From positions 1-42,369 of the forward strand of contig JAJXTN010000009.1 in NCBI GenBank assembly GCA_021783725.1: a DNA stretch of 42,369 nt, given 5' to 3'. The DNA is from a bacterium (GTDB lineage: Bacteria > Patescibacteriota > Saccharimonadia > Saccharimonadales > UBA4665). Every line of letters begins with the position of its first letter. Position 1 is the stretch's first letter. The notes under the pieces are model-generated. The model searched no databases and had not been told where the DNA came from. It was given only the letters and a program-made list of their open reading frames with translations. The translations under genes and the position numbers were made by a program. Below are positions 4,206 through 10,954 of this stretch, piece after piece.

Positions 4206-4350
4206 AATCGCAAGATACAACTTGCGATTCCTCAAAGTCACAATCCAAGGAGCGTTAAGCGACTGAATGTGACTTTGAGAGGAGAAACGTAGTTCTAGAT
4301 CGAAGCTTTTGCCGAAAGGCAAAACGAGATAGGAACGTACGTTTGGACGA
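4206..4350 (+). ncRNA. Structured RNA upstream of tmRNA (leader or separate small RNA)
   Basis: 145 nt between the promoter and ssrA with no coding capacity and three strong helices. H1: AATCGCAAG 4206-4214 with CTTGCGATT 4221-4229, 9 bp. H2: CTCAAAGTCACA 4231-4242 with TGTGACTTTGAG 4268-4279, 12 perfect pairs. H3: AAACGTA 4285-4291 with TACGTTT 4338-4344, continued by GTTC 4292-4295 with GAAC 4333-4336, and capped by TTTTGCC-GAAA-GGCAAAA (4307-4324), a GNRA tetraloop hairpin. It is not 5S, SRP, RNase P or 6S RNA by any motif I recognise. It may be a precursor leader removed from pre-tmRNA, or an independent RNA processed from the same transcript. Confidence 0.55.
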
Positions 4351-4912
4351 GGGGCTGACTTTTAAGCTCGACGTTGGACTTTATCGGTTAGATCAGCAGG
4401 TCGCTTGTCAGCGTGAGACCTACCTTAGGGTATTTTTTGTTAGCGAGCGCTCTAATTTATGTAACGAAAAGTTTTATTCGCAGAGAAGTATAGCGGTGCT
4501 ATACAGAACGAAGAATATAACTTTGGAGTCATAAATTTGAGTGCACAGCAATAAATAAATATCGTAAGGTAGGTCTCTAATAGGCAAAATTTGTAACTGC
4601 AAACGCTTTTACTCGCGCAATGAACAAGCTAGCCAGTGTTTTCACTGCTCCTAGCTATGCATTCGCAACAGCTTAAGTCTAAAACCTTAAGCCGCGCCGC
4701 GCATGACTTCAGATAGTGCAAAGGTGCGTCATATATTTCTGGACGCTCACGCTGAACTGTCCTAGCAGTGTGCTAAGACTTTAGGATTGCTACGACGAGA
4801 TGTTTGTTCGTTTCGATACTCGTCGTTTAAGACACCAAAACGAACTAAACCTGTAGATGACTAACCATCGATAAACCGACGGACGCGGGGGCGGTACCCG
4901 CCAGCTCCACCA
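4351..4912 (+). ncRNA. ssrA: tmRNA (transfer-messenger RNA)
   Basis: tmRNA rescues stalled ribosomes and tags the product for proteolysis, with SmpB and EF-Tu. The 5' end GGGGCTG (4351-4357) pairs with CAGCTCC (4902-4908) in a 7-bp acceptor stem that includes G3:U70, the alanine identity pair, followed by ACCA. The long P2 helix is seen as TTTATC/GATAAA and GGTTAG/CTAACC. The resume codon is GCA at 4599; 25 codons (ANAFTRAM...SYAFATA) run to TAA 4674-4676. Helix P5 (GCTTAAG 4671-4677 with CTTAAGC 4686-4692) spans the stop as in E. coli. The last pseudoknot is clear: CGACGAG 4793-4799 with CTCGTCG 4819-4825, loop GTTCGTTT 4806-4813 with AAACGAAC 4838-4845. Length 562 nt is long, with the tag starting at nt 249. 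The 3' end is the left attachment site of the integrated element. Confidence 0.93.
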
Positions 4913-6446
4913 TATTGCTAAAATTGACCTCATCGAGGTCTTTTTTATTTGTTCCTAATCTGTAGATTGAGCTCAATTTGAGGGGGTGAACACTTGCGGC
5001 ATTATCCATATAAATTTTTCCATTAAATAGAATTTGTTCACCCCTCTTCATGTTTTCCCAGCTTAGTTCCCACCATTTCTCCCGTAACCTATCTACGAAA
5101 TCAATAGCAAACCCAACGAATCCCTCTGACTCTAAGTCGACATCTTTTACTTGGTGGATTTGTAATTCCACTTCGCTCAGTTCATTGTTATAGTCTTTGA
5201 GTAGTTTGCCAAGATTGCCTTTAATAATATCGTCTTTCTCTGTAGCATATGATTCAGCTACACCCTTTATCTTTTTTTCGATTGCTGTCCGGTTAACTTC
5301 TAGCGTATTCAATCTCTGAGCCACTGAACCCCTCTGATTCTTCCAGACCTTTATAAGTGCATCCTTGAAGCTTTTTCGGTCAGGAATGAACTGTAGGCTG
5401 TCCATGTAGCTGGAGAAGGCGTTCTCTACAACCTCACGCCCCATGCGCTTTCTGCAGTCACGGCAGTCGTATACGGGTTGCGAGACTCTCTGCTTGCCAC
5501 TCGGACGCTTGCCTGGATTTCTGTGGTGACCACAAAACTTCTCATAGCCGCCAAGCCCTTCGCATTCTTTATGACGTAGTAAGTTGCCAAGCATAAACTC
5601 AGGGTTATGCTCGTATCTAAAACGTGGATTTCGTTTTTTCAGTATGGACACCAAGATGGCATGCTCGCGCTTTGATAGAAGCGGTACATGTAGCCCAGGT
5701 ATATTTTCTGGCCAGCCTGGCTTATTTATATTAATGATACCGCAGTAGTAGGTATCTACTATGAATTCACTATAGTGGTCAATATCTAGCTTATTGCCAC
5801 CCTTGGTTCTATAGCCATTTTCGTTCATCCAGGTGATAGCTTGTTCTGGTGTATGATTTTTGTAAATAATGAGATGACAGCCCTCTTTTAGAAGAGAAAA
5901 ACGCGGCTCATCCGGAATATGTAAACCATCTCTAGCGTCAGTTCTTTTATAGCCTGCATGGGGGTAGAACGGGTAGTAGCCAAGCCCGACACGATTCCGC
6001 ATACGTTCTGTTGCGAGGCTCGACTTTTCTTCATTTTCCATTTCTGCTTGTACGAGCTTCTCTACTCGTTTTAGGAAAGTCCCCGGGTCAGTTCCGTTAA
6101 GCTCTTGTTGGCTCGGGTCGCAAAAAATCAACCTAACTCCGTAATTAATCTGCAAATCAAGCATGTAATACGTTAGGTATTCTGCTTCACGTCCAAGCCG
6201 ATTGACTCTGTCGAACAGAATATACTTAATCTTCTTGTTAGTTCGACAGAGATTCTTGGCTTCTACTAGGTCCTTGCGTTTAAGGTTTTTGCCTTTCTTG
6301 CTGGAAGTATGGAGGGCCCATTTCTTGACAATAGGAACTCCCAGTTCCTCGGCCATTGCCTGCACGTTTACGCCTTGAATGTCGAGACTATTGCTTAACA
6401 GCTGCTCTTTAGATGAAACACGACAAAGTGCAAGGGCTTCATCCAT
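4845..6446 (-). CDS. Large serine recombinase (integrase)
   Basis: 533 residues. The N-terminal resolvase domain begins ALCRVSSKEQ, with the nucleophilic serine in the R-V-S-S motif, followed by the conserved arginine motif FDRVNRLGR (about 92-100). A recombinase domain (about 165-260; GYYPFYPHAGYKR, GYRTKGG) and a zinc ribbon (CEGLGGYEKFCGHH ... YDCRDC, about 320-355) follow, then a coiled-coil region (about 385-440). The family inserts circular DNA at an att site by double-strand cleavage through 5'-phosphoserine links. ATG 6446 is chosen because TTGAGG lies 6 nt upstream; a longer frame to 6494 has no ribosome binding site. The last 19 residues or so (after MVELAGT) are antisense to tmRNA and belong to the host side of attL, so the tail differs in the excised form. 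Confidence 0.93.
   Translation of the reverse strand: MDEALALCRVSSKEQLLSNSLDIQGVNVQAMAEELGVPIVKKWALHTSSKKGKNLKRKDLVEAKNLCRTNKKIKYILFDRVNRLGREAEYLTYYMLDLQINYGVRLIFCDPSQQELNGTDPGTFLKRVEKLVQAEMENEEKSSLATERMRNRVGLGYYPFYPHAGYKRTDARDGLHIPDEPRFSLLKEGCHLIIYKNHTPEQAITWMNENGYRTKGGNKLDIDHYSEFIVDTYYCGIININKPGWPENIPGLHVPLLSKREHAILVSILKKRNPRFRYEHNPEFMLGNLLRHKECEGLGGYEKFCGHHRNPGKRPSGKQRVSQPVYDCRDCRKRMGREVVENAFSSYMDSLQFIPDRKSFKDALIKVWKNQRGSVAQRLNTLEVNRTAIEKKIKGVAESYATEKDDIIKGNLGKLLKDYNNELSEVELQIHQVKDVDLESEGFVGFAIDFVDRLREKWWELSWENMKRGEQILFNGKIYMDNAASVHPLKLSSIYRLGTNKKDLDEVNFSNMVELAGTAPASVGLSMVSHLQV
4893..4908 (+). repeat. attL core (left direct repeat in ssrA)
   Basis: GGTACCCGCCAGCTCC, identical to 10939-10954. 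It contains the T-stem 3' strand and acceptor 3' strand of tmRNA and a GGTACC palindrome. Sequence to the left is host; sequence to the right (ACCATATTGC...) should be element-derived if crossover is inside the core. Confidence 0.88.
4926..4946 (+). terminator. Element-supplied terminator for ssrA
   Basis: GACCTC-ATC-GAGGTC followed by TTTTTT, 13 nt after the tmRNA CCA. It lies inside the element and inside the antisense coding region of the integrase, so the element brings a new terminator for the host tmRNA. Confidence 0.75.
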
Positions 6447-6452
6447 GATTTG

Positions 6453-6553
6453 CCTCAACAGTATAGACGGCAGCCCAAGGGTACGGCTCGGCATGAGCGT
6501 AGTCAGACCGCCGTCTATAAATTTGAGGTGTGTTCGTAAGTAGCATGCCGAGC
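6453..6553 (-). promoter_or_regulatory. Integrase mRNA leader with interlocked inverted repeats over the Shine-Dalgarno
   Basis: Inverted repeat 1: CCTCAAcagTATAGACGGC (6453-6471) with GCCGTCTATAaatTTGAGG (6510-6528), 16 pairs around 3 unpaired bases per side. On the minus-strand mRNA the 3' arm ends in TTGAGG, the ribosome binding site of the integrase, so this helix would hide it. Inverted repeat 2: GCTCGGCATG (6486-6495) with CATGCCGAGC (6544-6553), 10 perfect pairs. One arm of repeat 2 lies in the loop of repeat 1 and the other outside it, so the two make a pseudoknot or compete. Confidence 0.65.
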
Positions 6554-6677
6554 TTTCCCTTGTTGATTACCTAATTTGATTCTACAGTCGTTTCCTCGTA
6601 TATGCCATACAACCACAAGCAGAACTCCTCAAGGTCTGCTTGTTCAAAAGATTGGTTGCTACTCATAAATTTGCATA

Positions 6678-6704
6678 TAAAAAACCGCCTGCTGGCGCAA
6701 GCGG
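6678..6704 (-). terminator. Intrinsic terminator after the terminase-like gene
   Basis: On the minus strand CCGCTTG-cgccag-CAGGCGG (one G-U pair) is followed by a run of seven T. It ends transcription of the 145-residue gene before the integrase leader, so the two minus-strand genes are separate units. The remaining 6554-6820 holds an 8-bp hairpin (CAAGCAGA 6616-6623 with TCTGCTTG 6635-6642) and no gene that I can support. Confidence 0.7.
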
Positions 6705-6820
6705 CTGACGCTTTGAGGGTAGCATGCAAAAATGCTCTTGTCATTGGGCAGTATTTGTTAAGTTACAAAATACATAAAATGGCCTAATCTGTTGGTGATT
6801 TTAAAGGTTGTAAATAGTAC

Positions 6821-7258
6821 TTAGTTTTTGACCTGCTGGAGCATATTTATGTGCGTGCCTCCCTGCACGGGCATCAAGCCTGCGAGTTGGTCCATATACT
6901 TAATCGCTTTTAGCCGCGCATCCCAGTCGGCAACAAATATAAAGGTATTCTCATTACCATCAATACGTATATGGTGACAACGCTCAGTAACACTACCTAA
7001 TCTGAACGGCTTGTCCGCATACAGCATCTGCATTAGCATCTCAGCTCGAAATTTTATACGCGCAGAAGAATTTTCTATTACGGAAATATACTCATTGCGT
7101 ATTTGTGTGATTCTGTGTGATTCAGCCTTCGCAATACGTGCTGCAGTCTGGTTGCTGGTTATCGCTGTGCCTTCTATGGCTTGTCGCGTAGATTGGCCCT
7201 CAGCAAGTCGCTGTAGTACCGTCTCCTTGTCTGCTAATGGAATTGTTTTGTTTGCCAT
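6821..7258 (-). CDS. Terminase small subunit-like DNA-binding protein (tentative)
   Basis: 145 residues, soluble, basic N-terminus. A helix-turn-helix-like stretch (QRLAEGQSTRQAIEGTAITS, about 16-35) is followed by helices, and the end (DWDARLKAIKYMDQLAGLMP, about 110-130) resembles the tail of phage terminase small subunits, where a-R-l-k-A-l-x-x-l-x-x-l-x-G-l is common. The small subunit selects the DNA to be packaged in phage heads; in SaPI-type satellites it redirects packaging. No large subunit or portal is nearby. A strong Shine-Dalgarno (AGGAGGTG) fixes the start. An alternative role is an excision factor or transcriptional regulator of the integrase. The family call is from pattern only. 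Confidence 0.5.
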   Translation of the reverse strand: MANKTIPLADKETVLQRLAEGQSTRQAIEGTAITSNQTAARIAKAESHRITQIRNEYISVIENSSARIKFRAEMLMQMLYADKPFRLGSVTERCHHIRIDGNENTFIFVADWDARLKAIKYMDQLAGLMPVQGGTHINMLQQVKN

Positions 7259-7272
7259 TACACCTCCTATTT

Positions 7273-7304
7273 AAAACAAAAACAGCAGCCGCAAAGGGCT
7301 ACTG
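7273..7304 (-). terminator. Terminator-like hairpin in the leader of the terminase-like gene
   Basis: On the minus strand CAGTAGCC-ctttgc-GGCTGCTG (8 pairs, one G-U) is followed by TTTTTGTTTT, and only a few bases later by the AGGAGGTG ribosome binding site. A terminator in the leader implies attenuation, or the end of a short divergent RNA. Confidence 0.6.
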
Positions 7305-7362
7305 TGCCTAATCATACTATAGCACTTATTGCAGCAGGGGTCAGAAAAGGGTATGCTGAGTT

Positions 7363-7497
7363 TGCTTAAGCTAACAGCGGTTTTTTATTACCGGCACTTA
7401 TTTTCGTGCGGTTTTGCCCATCAACGGCATCTCGTACGAAAGCAGTCAGGGCAAAACCTGCTGTTGGCTTAAGCACCTAGTACGAGGTGCCTTTTTT
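7363..7497 (+). promoter_or_regulatory. Structured leader with terminator, riboswitch-like
   Basis: 135 nt of nested helices before the 186-residue gene. P1: 7363-7378 with 7460-7475, 16 pairs including one G-U. P3: GCAC 7394-7397 with GTGC 7406-7409. P4: GGTTTTGCCC 7410-7419 with GGGCAAAACC 7449-7458, 10 pairs. Terminator: GCACCT 7473-7478 with AGGTGC 7485-7490, then TTTTTT 7492-7497. P1 and the terminator share 7473-7475, and CTCGTAC (7431-7437) in the P4 loop can pair with GTACGAG (7480-7486) of the terminator loop. The ribosome binding site GGAG and ATG 7514 follow. The known riboswitch classes I can recall do not match. Confidence 0.65.
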
Positions 7498-7513
7498 AAT
7501 TGGAGAAAAATAG

Positions 7514-8074
7514 ATGGAAAAGCTATTTGACCTCGATGAGCTACATGCAGGTTATCGTAAGAAGAAGATAAGAAACTGGTTATTAATAATTCCAGTTATT
7601 ATTTTTGTTTTACTAGGCTTGGCCGGCCTTGCTTCGAATGGGCACAACTCGCACGCGGACGTTAATCTAACTGGTTCAACTGCCCCCATAAGTGGAGACG
7701 ACACTAACTCAAGCAAACCACTATCCACTACAGCACAACAATCTAGCAGTGATAGTGTAACTCAACCCCAGCAGTCTACTGGCAGCAGCTACTCTCCGAA
7801 TAGTTTGTATACATATACGCCAACTGCAACAACTAATAAATCGTCGACGGCTCCCAGTATTACCGCACCAGACCCTAGTAAATGCGCTGGAATTAGAGCG
7901 CAAGAGTCTGCGGCTACAGCTGACCTTGACGCTCAAGCGGCACAACTAAGGGAGCAAATAAAAACTGAACAAGACCCAACTCAAGACCGACAGAAGCTTA
8001 TCGCCATAGTCAACCAAATCACAGCCATAGACGAAACATTTATTCCGCAGCTAACTGCCAATATGTGTCCTTAA
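7514..8074 (+). CDS. Membrane-anchored Ser/Thr-rich protein of the element
   Basis: 186 residues, family not recognised. A short cytoplasmic N-terminus with a basic cluster (RKKKIRN) precedes one hydrophobic segment (about 23-42, WLLIIPVIIFVLLGLAGLA). Then comes a low-complexity Ser/Thr/Gln/Pro linker (about 45-118) and a small helical C-terminal domain (about 120-186) with two cysteines (SKCAGIR and the third residue from the end region NMCP), which could form a disulfide outside the cell. GGAG lies 8 nt before the ATG. It is probably displayed on the cell surface. A role in superinfection exclusion or adhesion is possible but unsupported. Confidence 0.75.
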   Translation: MEKLFDLDELHAGYRKKKIRNWLLIIPVIIFVLLGLAGLASNGHNSHADVNLTGSTAPISGDDTNSSKPLSTTAQQSSSDSVTQPQQSTGSSYSPNSLYTYTPTATTNKSSTAPSITAPDPSKCAGIRAQESAATADLDAQAAQLREQIKTEQDPTQDRQKLIAIVNQITAIDETFIPQLTANMCP

Positions 8075-8100
8075 TTAATAATCTGCGAAAGGGGGAAAGA

Positions 8101-8256
8101 ATGATTTGGATAATTCTTATAGTAATCTTCATTATTATTGATTTATATGTGCGTATCAATAATATGGGTAAATCAATAGTGCGAATTGCCAAAGTTGTCG
8201 ATGCTAAGGTAGAAGACCTCGAGCAACGCATTCAAGACCTTGAAACCCCGAATTAA
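8101..8256 (+). CDS. Small membrane protein with coiled coil
   Basis: 51 residues: MIWIILIVIFIIIDLYVRIN is one membrane helix, followed by a charged helix with heptad spacing (VDAKVEDLEQRIQDLE). ATG 8101 is preceded by GGGGGAAAG, a good ribosome binding site; a longer frame from 8065 would overlap the preceding gene and ignores this site. It lies 26 nt after the 186-residue gene and is probably co-transcribed, so the two may form one membrane complex. No known family. Confidence 0.7.
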   Translation: MIWIILIVIFIIIDLYVRINNMGKSIVRIAKVVDAKVEDLEQRIQDLETPN

Positions 8257-8277
8257 TATATAGAAAAGTGATTATTG

Positions 8278-8283
8278 TATAAT
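8278..8283 (+). promoter_or_regulatory. -10 box TATAAT before a structured RNA
   Basis: Perfect TATAAT with predicted start at about 8290, which falls at the first base of the helix at 8292. The -35 region is not convincing. Confidence 0.5.
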
Positions 8284-8289
8284 ATGCTT

Positions 8290-8366
8290 TTTAACAGGGG
8301 TGGGCTTTGTTACTTCATAATTTGACAAAGCTTGGTATTGCATAAAATTACAAGCTACCTCTGTTA
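8290..8366 (+). ncRNA. Candidate branched small RNA of the element
   Basis: TAACAGGGGT (8292-8301) pairs with ACCTCTGTTA (8357-8366), 10 pairs with one G-U. Inside are GCTTTGT 8304-8310 with ACAAAGC 8325-8331, and AGCTTG 8329-8334 with CAAGCT 8351-8356; the last two share three bases, so they may alternate. The size is near that of a tRNA but there is no T-loop or anticodon arm. No U-run terminator follows. A further imperfect hairpin lies at 8373-8398. Either a small RNA or a regulatory structure ahead of the 594-residue gene. The rest of 8367-8475 shows nothing else. Confidence 0.45.
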
Positions 8367-8475
8367 GGGGCTGTCCGACAACGTTCATTGTGCGACATAA
8401 AACCTCATCTCCTCGACTGCCAGATTAGCCATAACCAATATCGCTCGATTGCACTTTACTGTATAAATACTCACT

Positions 8476-10260
8476 ATGAGCAAGCGTAAACAGGTGACAC
8501 TGCTAATTATCATCGTTGCGATAGATGTGTTCTTGGTGTTCCTGAAGTTCAATCTAAAGCTGCCACACTACACTTTACCCGTGGCTAGTAATCCATACTT
8601 TACTTTAGGTGATGCCGTTGCTGCTCTCGCCCTTGTTTTTGCCGTTACACAGCTTGCAAATGATTCGTGGGGATTAACTTTGAGGATTAAGGGAAGAGTG
8701 AAAAGTAACATAGTTTGGTTACTGCTTGGATTGGGGTTAGCAGCTTCCCTAACCTCCGCACTCTTACCCCAACCCAGCAGTACAGCGATTAACGTTTATA
8801 AGAACCCCTTATTTTGGCAGATTGCTGCATTCTTTTGCTTTGCAAGCGCACCCTTTATGCTTCGACGCATAGGAACTTATAGAAGACGCCTGTTCAATAA
8901 ATCAACAGCACCTCGTTATTATCAGGTGCTGCTTGCTGCCTATTCAACCGGGGACAACAAACAGATTAAAGCAGCTACCGACATAATACTTGAAAGCCTT
9001 GATTCAATAGTGGAGTGTATTAAGCCAACACGCTTCAAGGTAACCTTACGAATGAGATTCTTATCTGAGATAAACAAAAATAAACTCGGTCAAAGATATA
9101 TTCTGTGGCTGAATAAGCGTCGTTTCGCTAAAGAAGAACGTAAGCGTAAAGAAAAGAAAGGAACATCGCCACAGCAATACGCCTACAGACTGTTCGACAC
9201 GGCGCTAACCGATACTGCAGTCAGTAGCTACATTGCTACCAAACGCATAGATTTTATATGGAACTTCACTAGCAGCATTACGAGTAAACGTTTAGAGGGT
9301 CGCCAGCTTAGGCGGGGCTTTAATAGTATTGTTTCCCAGCTGTTCACCAACGAAAACTCCTATTTGTACAGGCAGTCCAAATACAAAGGTACTGGTCAGT
9401 TCGCGCCTGTAAACGATTTAATATTCGGCTCCAAATACTTGGCTCAAAACTTTGAGCCTATACGTTCATGGCGCGAAGGAAGGTCTAGTACCAATATAAA
9501 GCCAGAGGATTACGTTGAAGTTTTCCTTCGCGCGCTCGAAAGTTCGATAAAAAATGACGCCTTTAACGACAGCCGAATTGCAGAATCAGTAGGGTTTATT
9601 ATGTATGAGCTTTCGGAGTATACGCGTGACCTGTTGTATAAATCGGAAGACTCCATTAACGAGTACCACATGGCATTTTGGCGCATAGAGCAATTCTTTA
9701 GTCGTACGTTTCTAGAGCTTTATAGCGAAGCTCTAAAAGCCAACAAGGTATCCGATAATGAAAAGACAGCGACCAAAGGTGAGCGTTATCGCCAGCAATG
9801 CCTGACAGCTACTTATGCTGAATGCTTCGTAGACTTTCTGGGTGAGCTATCAAGAGGCCCAAAGGATGGCATGAGTATGCATCAGCTTGTCGTTTTTGCA
9901 CTTAATGAGCTTTACGAAAAGAATGAATATAGTGCAATCAGAGATACATTTGCGCTCTATGCTTGGGAGGCGATTGATATGAGTGTTAAGCAAGGCTTCT
10001 ACCCAGCCTTTATAAAGATATACATTCGCTTAATGTACTTTATGAGCTCAAAGGACGGTGCATGGGTTAAGGCAGAGCGTGCTAAGCTCATGAAGCTAGT
10101 AAATGGTGACCTAAAAGCAAAGATAAAAGCTAGGGCAAAGATGAACAACAAGCGTGATTACATGGAAGATTATTTGTTGCCAAGCGAACTCAAGTATAAC
10201 AGGAAGAAAGATAAGTTTGAGTGGACGGACGCGGGTGATAATAAATCTGATTTTAACTAG
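8476..10260 (+). CDS. Large membrane protein with helical cytoplasmic domain, unknown function
   Basis: 594 residues. Four hydrophobic segments near 8-25, 43-62, 76-98 and 108-130 anchor it; the remaining 460 residues are soluble, mostly helical, rich in Arg/Lys and aromatic residues (RKRKEKKGTSPQQYAYRLFDTALTD, YVEVFLRALESSIKNDAFNDSRIAESVGF), and lie in the cytoplasm by the positive-inside rule. There is no P-loop, nuclease, TIR or other catalytic motif that I can see. It is the largest gene of the element and makes up the main cargo, so it may give the host a benefit such as phage resistance; this is inference from position. TATAAA lies 8 nt before the ATG, with no ribosome binding site. Confidence 0.75.
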   Translation: MSKRKQVTLLIIIVAIDVFLVFLKFNLKLPHYTLPVASNPYFTLGDAVAALALVFAVTQLANDSWGLTLRIKGRVKSNIVWLLLGLGLAASLTSALLPQPSSTAINVYKNPLFWQIAAFFCFASAPFMLRRIGTYRRRLFNKSTAPRYYQVLLAAYSTGDNKQIKAATDIILESLDSIVECIKPTRFKVTLRMRFLSEINKNKLGQRYILWLNKRRFAKEERKRKEKKGTSPQQYAYRLFDTALTDTAVSSYIATKRIDFIWNFTSSITSKRLEGRQLRRGFNSIVSQLFTNENSYLYRQSKYKGTGQFAPVNDLIFGSKYLAQNFEPIRSWREGRSSTNIKPEDYVEVFLRALESSIKNDAFNDSRIAESVGFIMYELSEYTRDLLYKSEDSINEYHMAFWRIEQFFSRTFLELYSEALKANKVSDNEKTATKGERYRQQCLTATYAECFVDFLGELSRGPKDGMSMHQLVVFALNELYEKNEYSAIRDTFALYAWEAIDMSVKQGFYPAFIKIYIRLMYFMSSKDGAWVKAERAKLMKLVNGDLKAKIKARAKMNNKRDYMEDYLLPSELKYNRKKDKFEWTDAGDNKSDFN

Positions 10261-10389
10261 ACTACTAGCTTAAAGGCACAAAGGTGTATACCGCTAGGGG
10301 ATAGGTAACCTCTTTCGCCGCCTCTGCTCTACTTGATGGTCCATCCAATCTTCCCAGAGTAAATCGCTCCATCTATGTATTTCTTCAAT

Positions 10390-10672
10390 GATGAGGGGTG
10401 AACTTTTTTGGAGGTGCTCCTCCATTCTTCGCTAAAGCTACGAATGGCAGGCCATTTCGATTGAGGTGGTTTGCAATATTTAGCTTTGTATTCCACAAAC
10501 TGCGAAGAATGCCCTTCATAGCTTCAGCGACGAAGGGCTGAAATGATAAACTTCGCCAAGGCTTCGTATGGCAGGCCAATGTCATTAGACATGGTTTGCC
10601 TTGCGGAGCTTAATTTATAATTAAAATGCGAAGTATGTCCTACGTAGCTTCAGCGTAGTAGGGCTAAAATTG
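10390..10672. repeat. Two diverged direct repeats of palindromic units before a GIY-YIG remnant
   Basis: Two units of about 125 bp follow each other. Shared blocks are TTCGCTAAAGCTACGAATGGCAGG (near 10428) against CTTCGCCAAGGCTTCGTATGGCAGG (near 10551), split here only in description, then GGTTTGC, then GCGAAGAATG (10502) against GCGAAGTATG (10628), and a hairpin CCTTC...GAAGG (10513-10536) against CCTACG...GTAGG (10639-10662). Such hairpins commonly precede small GIY-YIG nuclease genes, which suggests an earlier copy lost its gene. The stretch 10261-10389 shows nothing recognisable. Confidence 0.6.
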
Positions 10673-10675
10673 CAA

Positions 10676-10924
10676 CATGTTCTACGTTTACATTATTGAG
10701 AGTTTATCTAAAGGTGTCGTATATGTAGGATATACAACCGACTTACGTCAACGACTGCAGTACCACAATATTGGTAGAGCTCGATACACTTCTAAATACT
10801 GACCGTGGTCTGTGTGATGGTATTGCGCTTTTAATTACAAAACTACCGCATTACAGTTTGAGAAATATCTTAAAACCGGTTCTGGCAAAGCATTTTCGCG
10901 AAAGCATTTAATTAATGATAATTG
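10676..10924 (+). pseudogene. GIY-YIG endonuclease-like gene, interrupted by two stops
   Basis: Translation from ATG 10676 gives MFYVYIIES...GVVYVGYTTDLRQRL, the Y-V-Y-I and Y-V-G-Y catalytic motifs with the conserved arginine (R in LRQRL), then HNIGRARYTSKY, stop, PWSV, stop, WYCAF, then LQFEKYLKTGSGKAFSRKHL and a final stop. This is an entire URI/GIY-YIG single-domain protein of about 83 codons with two in-frame TGA codons. The first TGA is one transition from CGA, an arginine expected there. TGA is a normal stop elsewhere in the window, so decay is preferred over recoding. The gene ends 15 nt before the attR core. Confidence 0.8.
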
Positions 10925-10938
10925 AGCAAATACGAACG

Positions 10939-10954
10939 GGTACCCGCCAGCTCC
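10939..10954 (+). repeat. attR core (right direct repeat)
   Basis: GGTACCCGCCAGCTCC, identical to the attL core, followed by TCCA instead of ACCA. It is the displaced 3' piece of ssrA and joins directly to the original terminator. Confidence 0.88.

What the first reader, a model, noticed from the sequence alone, without database searches (positions are those of the whole stretch)
4893..10954. A 6-kb serine-recombinase island in ssrA with a terminase-small-like gene: possible CPR phage satellite
Seen: 16-bp direct repeats at both ends of the island, a serine integrase, a protein with terminase-small-subunit-like ends and three membrane proteins, but no replication, structural or transfer genes. 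Known: SaPI-type satellites are small, site-specifically integrated, and use their own small terminase to hijack packaging; most ssrA-integrated elements use tyrosine integrases. Inference: the island may be a minimal satellite or a cargo/defence island of Saccharibacteria-like hosts. The terminase link is the weakest part.
Basis: partly seen in the sequence, partly recalled or inferred. Interest (0 to 1): 0.8.

Follow-up and report, generated by a model that had tools for sequence, protein, structure and literature searches.

The report
Saccharibacterial satellite-like island in ssrA
A 6-kb piece of DNA inserted at the end of the tmRNA gene of an ultra-small Saccharibacteria-type bacterium belongs to a family of small islands that use a serine integrase to sit in tRNA or tmRNA genes; many of them carry phage-defence genes, and some carry a lone phage-packaging gene (small terminase), so at least part of the family are probably phage satellites, a kind of element for which I found no report in these bacteria.

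Summary
The island is real: 4893-10954 is bounded by exact 16-bp repeats, the left one being the 3' end of ssrA (4351-4912). ARAGORN and Rfam miss this ssrA, but it aligns in most relatives, and several relatives have it uninterrupted. The integrase is a large serine recombinase (LSR). Across the order, related LSRs sit in tRNA or tmRNA genes (32 of 37 checked), and the four relatives with clear repeats span 4.6-8.2 kb. Orphan small terminases (TerS) are strongly linked to such islands: 9 of 11 Terminase_2-type genes lie within about 5 kb of an LSR, none has a large terminase nearby, and a true prophage carries the same TerS family next to its large terminase. Three other ssrA islands carry TerS-type genes. 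The window's own 145-aa protein has only weak TerS similarity, at both ends, and a 46%-identical relative beside an LSR in a tRNA-Met island. The 594-aa membrane protein's only relative lies between a type II restriction-modification system and an ApeA-like gene, so it is probably defence cargo. A conserved micro-ORF lies just upstream of the integrases. Best reading: a minimal LSR-based, satellite-like defence island. The satellite function of this copy is inferred, not shown.

The parts
4351..4912 (+). ssrA (tmRNA) gene, integration target; tag reading frame ANAFTRAMNKLASVFTAPSYAFATA*
   Evidence: GGGGCTGACTTTTAAGCTCGACG 5' end and GGTACCCGCCAGCTCCACCA 3' end align with ssrA of relatives; weak hits to RF01849/RF04321; tag read by eye
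4893..4908 (+). left direct repeat (attL core)
10939..10954 (+). right direct repeat (attR core), followed by the displaced TCCA and terminator of the original ssrA
   Evidence: TCCA + terminator also follows ssrA in uninterrupted relatives
4845..6494 (-). large serine recombinase (integrase), 549 aa; its last codons are encoded by the ssrA 3' end
   Evidence: Pfam Resolvase 1.8e-9, phrog_95 2.7e-30; 50% identical to G010 integrase in ssrA; circular form would end ..MVELAGTRSYLLNYH (542 aa) instead of ..MVELAGTAPASVGLSMVSHLQV
6571..6666 (-). conserved micro-ORF (31 aa from ATG at 6666, or 57 aa from 6744) just upstream of the integrase; candidate directionality factor or integrase regulator
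   Evidence: motif DLEEFCLWLYGIYE; profile finds relatives almost only directly upstream of LSRs
6821..7258 (-). 145-aa TerS-like protein (p145)
   Evidence: Sf6_terminase E 0.052, phrog_1482 TerS 0.13; homologue next to an LSR in G056; both ends align weakly to TerS profiles
7350..7500 (+). strongly folding intergenic segment with terminator-like hairpin
   Evidence: -57.7 kcal/mol, z = -4.2
7514..8074 (+). 186-aa membrane-anchored Ser/Thr-rich protein; N-terminus shared with the protein in the same slot of the G010 ssrA island
   Evidence: 38% over first 39 aa, E 5e-4
8065..8256 (+). 63-aa small membrane protein (true start probably the ATG at 8101)
   Evidence: ORF list
8476..10260 (+). 594-aa membrane protein, about four N-terminal hydrophobic segments and a large helical soluble domain; probable defence cargo
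   Evidence: only relative in the genomes searched (G087) lies between type II R-M genes and an ApeA/PDC-S58 gene
10427..10935 (+). imperfect repeats and a truncated GIY-YIG-type ORF (decayed insert)
   Evidence: repeats D1/D2; reading frame MFYVYIIESLSKGVVYVGYTTDLRQRL.. interrupted, read by eye

Best explanation
The segment is an integrated hitchhiker island of a Saccharibacteria-type host. Its serine integrase recombined a circular form into the 3' end of ssrA; the element restores the tmRNA end, swapping TCCA for ACCA, and supplies a new terminator. It has no replication, structural or transfer genes, so it most likely spreads as a phage satellite. On infection by a helper phage it would excise (perhaps with the micro-ORF product or a phage factor as directionality factor), and its TerS-like protein would mark its DNA for the helper's large terminase. 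Between helpers it earns its keep with a membrane-bound defence gene (594 aa). Shown: island boundaries, integrase class, use of ssrA/tRNA sites by the family, orphan TerS genes in sister islands. Inferred: excision, packaging, TerS function of p145, defence function of the 594-aa protein.
For: Exact 16-bp repeats and uninterrupted ssrA in relatives. LSR 3' ends overlap or adjoin tRNA/tmRNA genes in 32 of 37 cases checked; four bounded relatives span 4.55, 7.05, 7.47 and 8.17 kb. Terminase_2-type TerS genes lie within about 5 kb of an LSR in G134, G353, G103, G055, G363, G014, G065, G069 and G114: 9 of 11, the other two being close to contig ends. No phrog_2 large terminase in G000, G010, G056, G103, G134, G353, G055 or G363, and none by a home-made large-terminase profile in the regions around the G014, G065, G069, G114 and G381 genes. 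The same TerS family sits directly upstream of a large terminase in the G349 prophage. ssrA islands carry a TerS-type gene in G066 (phrog_4102, 8.7e-9), G103 (PF03592 above cut-off) and G010 (DUF5681-like). The DUF5681-like family profile weakly matches the gene just upstream of the large terminase in the G300 prophage (E 0.0028). p145 relative beside an LSR in G056. Defence context of the 594-aa homologue. Terminase genes in mobile elements are read as a sign of phage mobilisation (PMC11389934); PLE satellites use an LSR (PMC7145576).
Against: p145 is not a significant match to any TerS family (E >= 0.05), a TerS C-terminal profile ranks it only 11th among 5,494 ORFs, no PDB relative at E < 0.5, and its model is poor (pLDDT 52.6). 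No helper or prophage large terminase in this genome. No relatives of p145, the integrase or the island TerS in viral contigs, nor of p145, the 594-aa protein, one island TerS or one island DUF5681 protein in phage records. Only a minority of the family's islands carry a recognisable TerS. No replication gene. No excised form could be looked for.
Confidence: 0.55

Rival explanations
1. An ordinary LSR-integrated cargo/defence island, moved by transformation or accidental transduction. p145 is a DNA-binding regulator or directionality factor co-transcribed with the integrase, not a terminase subunit.
For: p145 lies in the integrase operon like a regulator; its TerS similarity is weak; most LSR islands of the family show R-M or other defence genes, or unknown genes, and no recognisable TerS.
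Against: In sister ssrA islands genes of TerS type are found beside the integrase (G010 DUF5681-like, G066 phrog_4102, G103 Terminase_2). A separate conserved micro-ORF already occupies the likely regulator position. N- and C-terminal ends of p145 both resemble TerS.
Confidence: 0.32
2. A decayed prophage that has lost everything but integrase, TerS and cargo.
For: No large terminase or structural genes; the right end holds a broken GIY-YIG gene.
Against: Intact integrase, micro-ORF, p145 and cargo; the bounded relatives are all 4.6-8.2 kb and none of their ORFs read as structural genes, although decay should leave variable remnants; the order integrase, micro-ORF, TerS-like gene recurs in different islands.
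Confidence: 0.08
3. An integrative mobilisable element that uses conjugation.
For: LSRs are common in integrative conjugative elements (general knowledge).
Against: No relaxase or coupling-type protein among the island ORFs.
Confidence: 0.03

Closest known systems
PICI/SaPI satellites
   Same: Small, site-specifically integrated islands that carry their own TerS and accessory genes (general knowledge)
   Different: Those use tyrosine integrases and carry replication and regulatory modules; here the integrase is an LSR and no replication module was found
PLE satellites of Vibrio cholerae
   Same: Integrase is a large serine recombinase; satellite lifestyle (PMC7145576)
   Different: PLEs encode a RepA_N initiator (PMC7145576); no such gene here
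PICMI minimalist islands of Vibrionaceae
   Same: Very small, few genes, frequent defence cargo, no capsid genes (PMC10803314)
   Different: PICMI model requires integrase, AlpA, primase and Fis; no AlpA or primase matched here, and the target is ssrA/tRNA instead of the fis region
tRNA/tmRNA genomic islands (Islander type)
   Same: Insertion in tmRNA 3' end with regeneration of the gene and a displaced fragment
   Different: Islander describes tyrosine integrases as the usual enzyme (PMC4383910 abstract); here a serine integrase whose C-terminal codons are the target gene itself

Membership tests
LSR-integrated genomic island | serine recombinase catalytic domain | tested here: met
   Pfam Resolvase 1.8e-9, phrog_95 2.7e-30
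LSR-integrated genomic island | direct repeats at both ends and an uninterrupted target in relatives | tested here: met
Phage satellite (general) | no own capsid or large terminase | tested here: met
   island ORFs; no phrog_2 match in genome
Phage satellite (general) | packaging signal or packaging-redirecting gene such as TerS | tested here: inconclusive
   p145 only weakly TerS-like; TerS-type genes in sister islands; cos/pac not testable
Phage satellite (general) | induced and packaged by a helper phage | not testable with these tools
   needs culture or reads; no helper prophage found
PICI/SaPI | tyrosine integrase | tested here: not met
   integrase is an LSR
PICI/SaPI | replication module (pri/rep) | tested here: not met
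   no replication gene among the main ORFs
PICMI | AlpA and primase genes | tested here: not met
   no Pfam/PHROG match; definition from PMC10803314
PLE | LSR integrase | tested here: met
   PMC7145576
PLE | RepA_N initiator | tested here: not met
   no such match

The most novel reading that the evidence does not exclude
Saccharibacteria-type bacteria host an undescribed superfamily of minimal phage satellites: LSR islands in tRNA/tmRNA genes, with a conserved integrase-upstream micro-ORF as control peptide, in which unrelated small terminases (Terminase_2, DUF5681-like, phrog_4102-like, p145) are exchanged, plus defence cargo such as the 594-aa membrane protein.
Probability: 0.45. Interest if true: 0.75.

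Novelty: new variant of a known kind. Interest (0 to 1): 0.62.

Why it matters
Phage biology of the Candidate Phyla Radiation is largely unknown, and a search of the open literature found no paper joining Saccharibacteria and phage satellites. If true, even hosts with genomes under 1 Mb carry satellites, probably with new defence genes, and the sister islands' orphan TerS genes give a direct handle for finding helper phages. The integrase-tRNA overlap also gives a simple signature for finding more such islands, and shows that ssrA in this group is missed by the ARAGORN and Rfam gathering searches run here.

Tried and rejected
AlphaFold2 of p145 (pLDDT 52.6) and of the 594-aa protein (pLDDT 52.9; Foldseek PDB no match at E <= 0.001) were uninformative. 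Viral-contig scans with p145, the integrase and island TerS found no relatives; phage records none for p145, the 594-aa protein, one island TerS and one DUF5681 protein. The only genome-contig scan with the p145 pair returned only the G056 relative. PDB sequence search with p145: nothing meaningful. Apparent p145 relatives in G267 and G384 align only by chance-like stretches and were dropped. p145 versus DUF5681: no profile similarity. Class-level search for the 594-aa protein: no further relatives. A shared hairpin in the G010 intergenic region was looked for by eye and not seen.
Full report
OBSERVATION. The window contains a complete ssrA gene at 4351-4912, which ARAGORN and Rfam at gathering threshold do not call (weak Rfam hit to alpha and permuted tmRNA). 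In a search of 60 genomes (the window's own among them) 54 had some match to the ssrA region, although some of those matches are only short repeats; the conserved 5' block and 3' end are clearly recognisable in most. The exact 16-bp repeat GGTACCCGCCAGCTCC is the ssrA 3' end at 4893-4908 and recurs once, at 10939-10954; no other copy with up to 2 mismatches exists and none arises in 100 shuffles. The distance between copies is 6,046 bp.

EMPTY SITES. In G003, G009 and G017 the ssrA gene ends ..CCAGCTCC-TCCA followed directly by a terminator hairpin. The same holds in G014, which shares the left-flank genes and, several kb to the right, the DEAD helicase. In the window that TCCA plus terminator stands after the right repeat, and the left copy has ACCA and a different terminator brought by the element. 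This is what site-specific insertion with regeneration of the target gives.

INTEGRASE FAMILY. The 549-aa integrase is a large serine recombinase. Its reading frame runs antisense through the element's terminator into ssrA, so its last codons belong to the host gene; in the circular form the tail would be ..MVELAGTRSYLLNYH instead of ..MVELAGTAPASVGLSMVSHLQV. A search of 393 genomes of the order found relatives in 50. Of 37 examined, 32 end inside or next to a tRNA or tmRNA gene (31: Gly, Lys, Glu, Arg, Met, Leu, tmRNA; plus G010 seen by eye). Four relatives with clear terminal repeats span 4,552, 7,049, 7,467 and 8,171 bp, and G066's ssrA element has a 14-bp imperfect repeat at about 4.0 kb. 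This is therefore a family of small tDNA islands.

TERMINASE LINK. Four ssrA islands can be compared: the window (p145), G010 (integrase 50% identical; DUF5681-like gene), G066 (79-aa gene, phrog_4102 terminase small subunit, 8.7e-9) and G103 (Terminase_2 above cut-off, but with an in-frame stop and a broken integrase). Order-wide, Terminase_2-type TerS genes of the island type lie within about 5 kb of an LSR in G134, G353, G103, G055, G363, G014, G065, G069 and G114, 9 of 11; the other two are close to contig ends. No large terminase was found in the first five of those genomes (phrog_2 search) or in the regions around the other TerS genes (home-made profile). Caveat: five of the nine came first from genomes already chosen for having such an LSR; the other four came from an order-wide search made without regard to LSRs. 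G055 holds two TerS genes 82% identical overall, with nearly identical C-terminal halves. In the G349 prophage the gene directly upstream of the large terminase belongs to the same TerS family (E 8.6e-15 to the island profile). In the G300 prophage the gene directly upstream of the large terminase weakly matches the island DUF5681 profile (E 0.0028). So orphan TerS genes in LSR islands are a real and recurrent feature of this order.

THE WINDOW'S OWN p145 is the weak point. Its best Pfam and PHROG hits of interest are TerS (E 0.052 and 0.13; its G056 relative 0.054 and 0.056). Profile alignment matches its N-terminus to the Sf6 TerS family and its C-terminus (ARLKAIKYMDQLAGLMP..) to the island TerS C-terminus, each score reached by 1 of 150 shuffled profiles, while DUF5681 gives nothing. 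A TerS C-terminal profile ranks it only 11th of 5,494 ORFs, and the structure model is poor. Its only relative, 46% identical, lies beside a distant LSR in a 4.55-kb tRNA-Met island of a Saccharibacteria MAG. I call it TerS-like, not TerS.

CARGO. The 594-aa protein has one relative in the genomes searched, in G087, between type II methyltransferase/restriction genes and an ApeA/PDC-S58 gene. Sister islands carry SIR2-like and kinase genes, NYN and HNH proteins and genes that read as restriction-modification systems (by eye). The defence function is inferred.

MICRO-ORF. Directly upstream of the integrase is a 31-57-aa ORF (6571-6666/6744) with motif DLEEFCLWLYGIYE. A profile built from 13 such ORFs, run on 10,956 small ORFs, finds further relatives almost exclusively just upstream of LSRs (for example G110 2.7e-6, G157 0.002); a simple motif occurs upstream of 19 of 453 control genes against 13 of 35 integrases, the integrase search having looked somewhat further upstream. 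It is a candidate directionality factor or control peptide; this is inference.

VERDICT. The satellite reading is supported for the family and plausible, not shown, for this copy. It fails the membership tests for PICI/SaPI and PICMI and shares with PLE only the LSR, so it is best filed as a new, minimal, LSR-based variant of satellite-like island. Literature searches found no paper that joins Saccharibacteria with phage satellites, within an open-access library only.

Noticed in passing
4415-4579: About 165-nt insert forming one long hairpin (z = -9.9) inside the ssrA gene, absent from the aligned relatives; it looks like an intervening sequence that might be cut out of the tmRNA.
   Followed up: partly
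4351-4912 and ssrA of relatives: tmRNA of this group has T-loop GGCGGUA or similar; ARAGORN missed it in every relative locus scanned, and Rfam gathering missed it in the window.
   Followed up: partly
4301-4354: Leader segment just upstream of ssrA is a repeat found elsewhere in this genome and in many copies in relatives.
   Followed up: no
6571-6666: Conserved micro-ORF upstream of LSR integrases across the order.
   Followed up: partly
7350-7500: Strong hairpin between p145 and the 186-aa gene, z = -4.2; could be a regulatory RNA, terminator or packaging site.
   Followed up: partly
10427-10935: Imperfect repeats followed by a broken GIY-YIG-type reading frame, a decayed insert at the right end of the island.
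   Followed up: no
L060:13644-14204 and L124:18046-18633 (G055): Two TerS genes 82% identical in one genome, one in an LSR island, one at a contig end.
   Followed up: partly
L033 (G030): A second copy of the ssrA 3' end 181 bp downstream of the first, perhaps a scar of a lost island.
   Followed up: no
L055:8647-14571 (G087): Cluster of type II R-M genes, a 190-aa unknown, the 594-aa homologue and an ApeA/PDC-S58 gene.
   Followed up: partly
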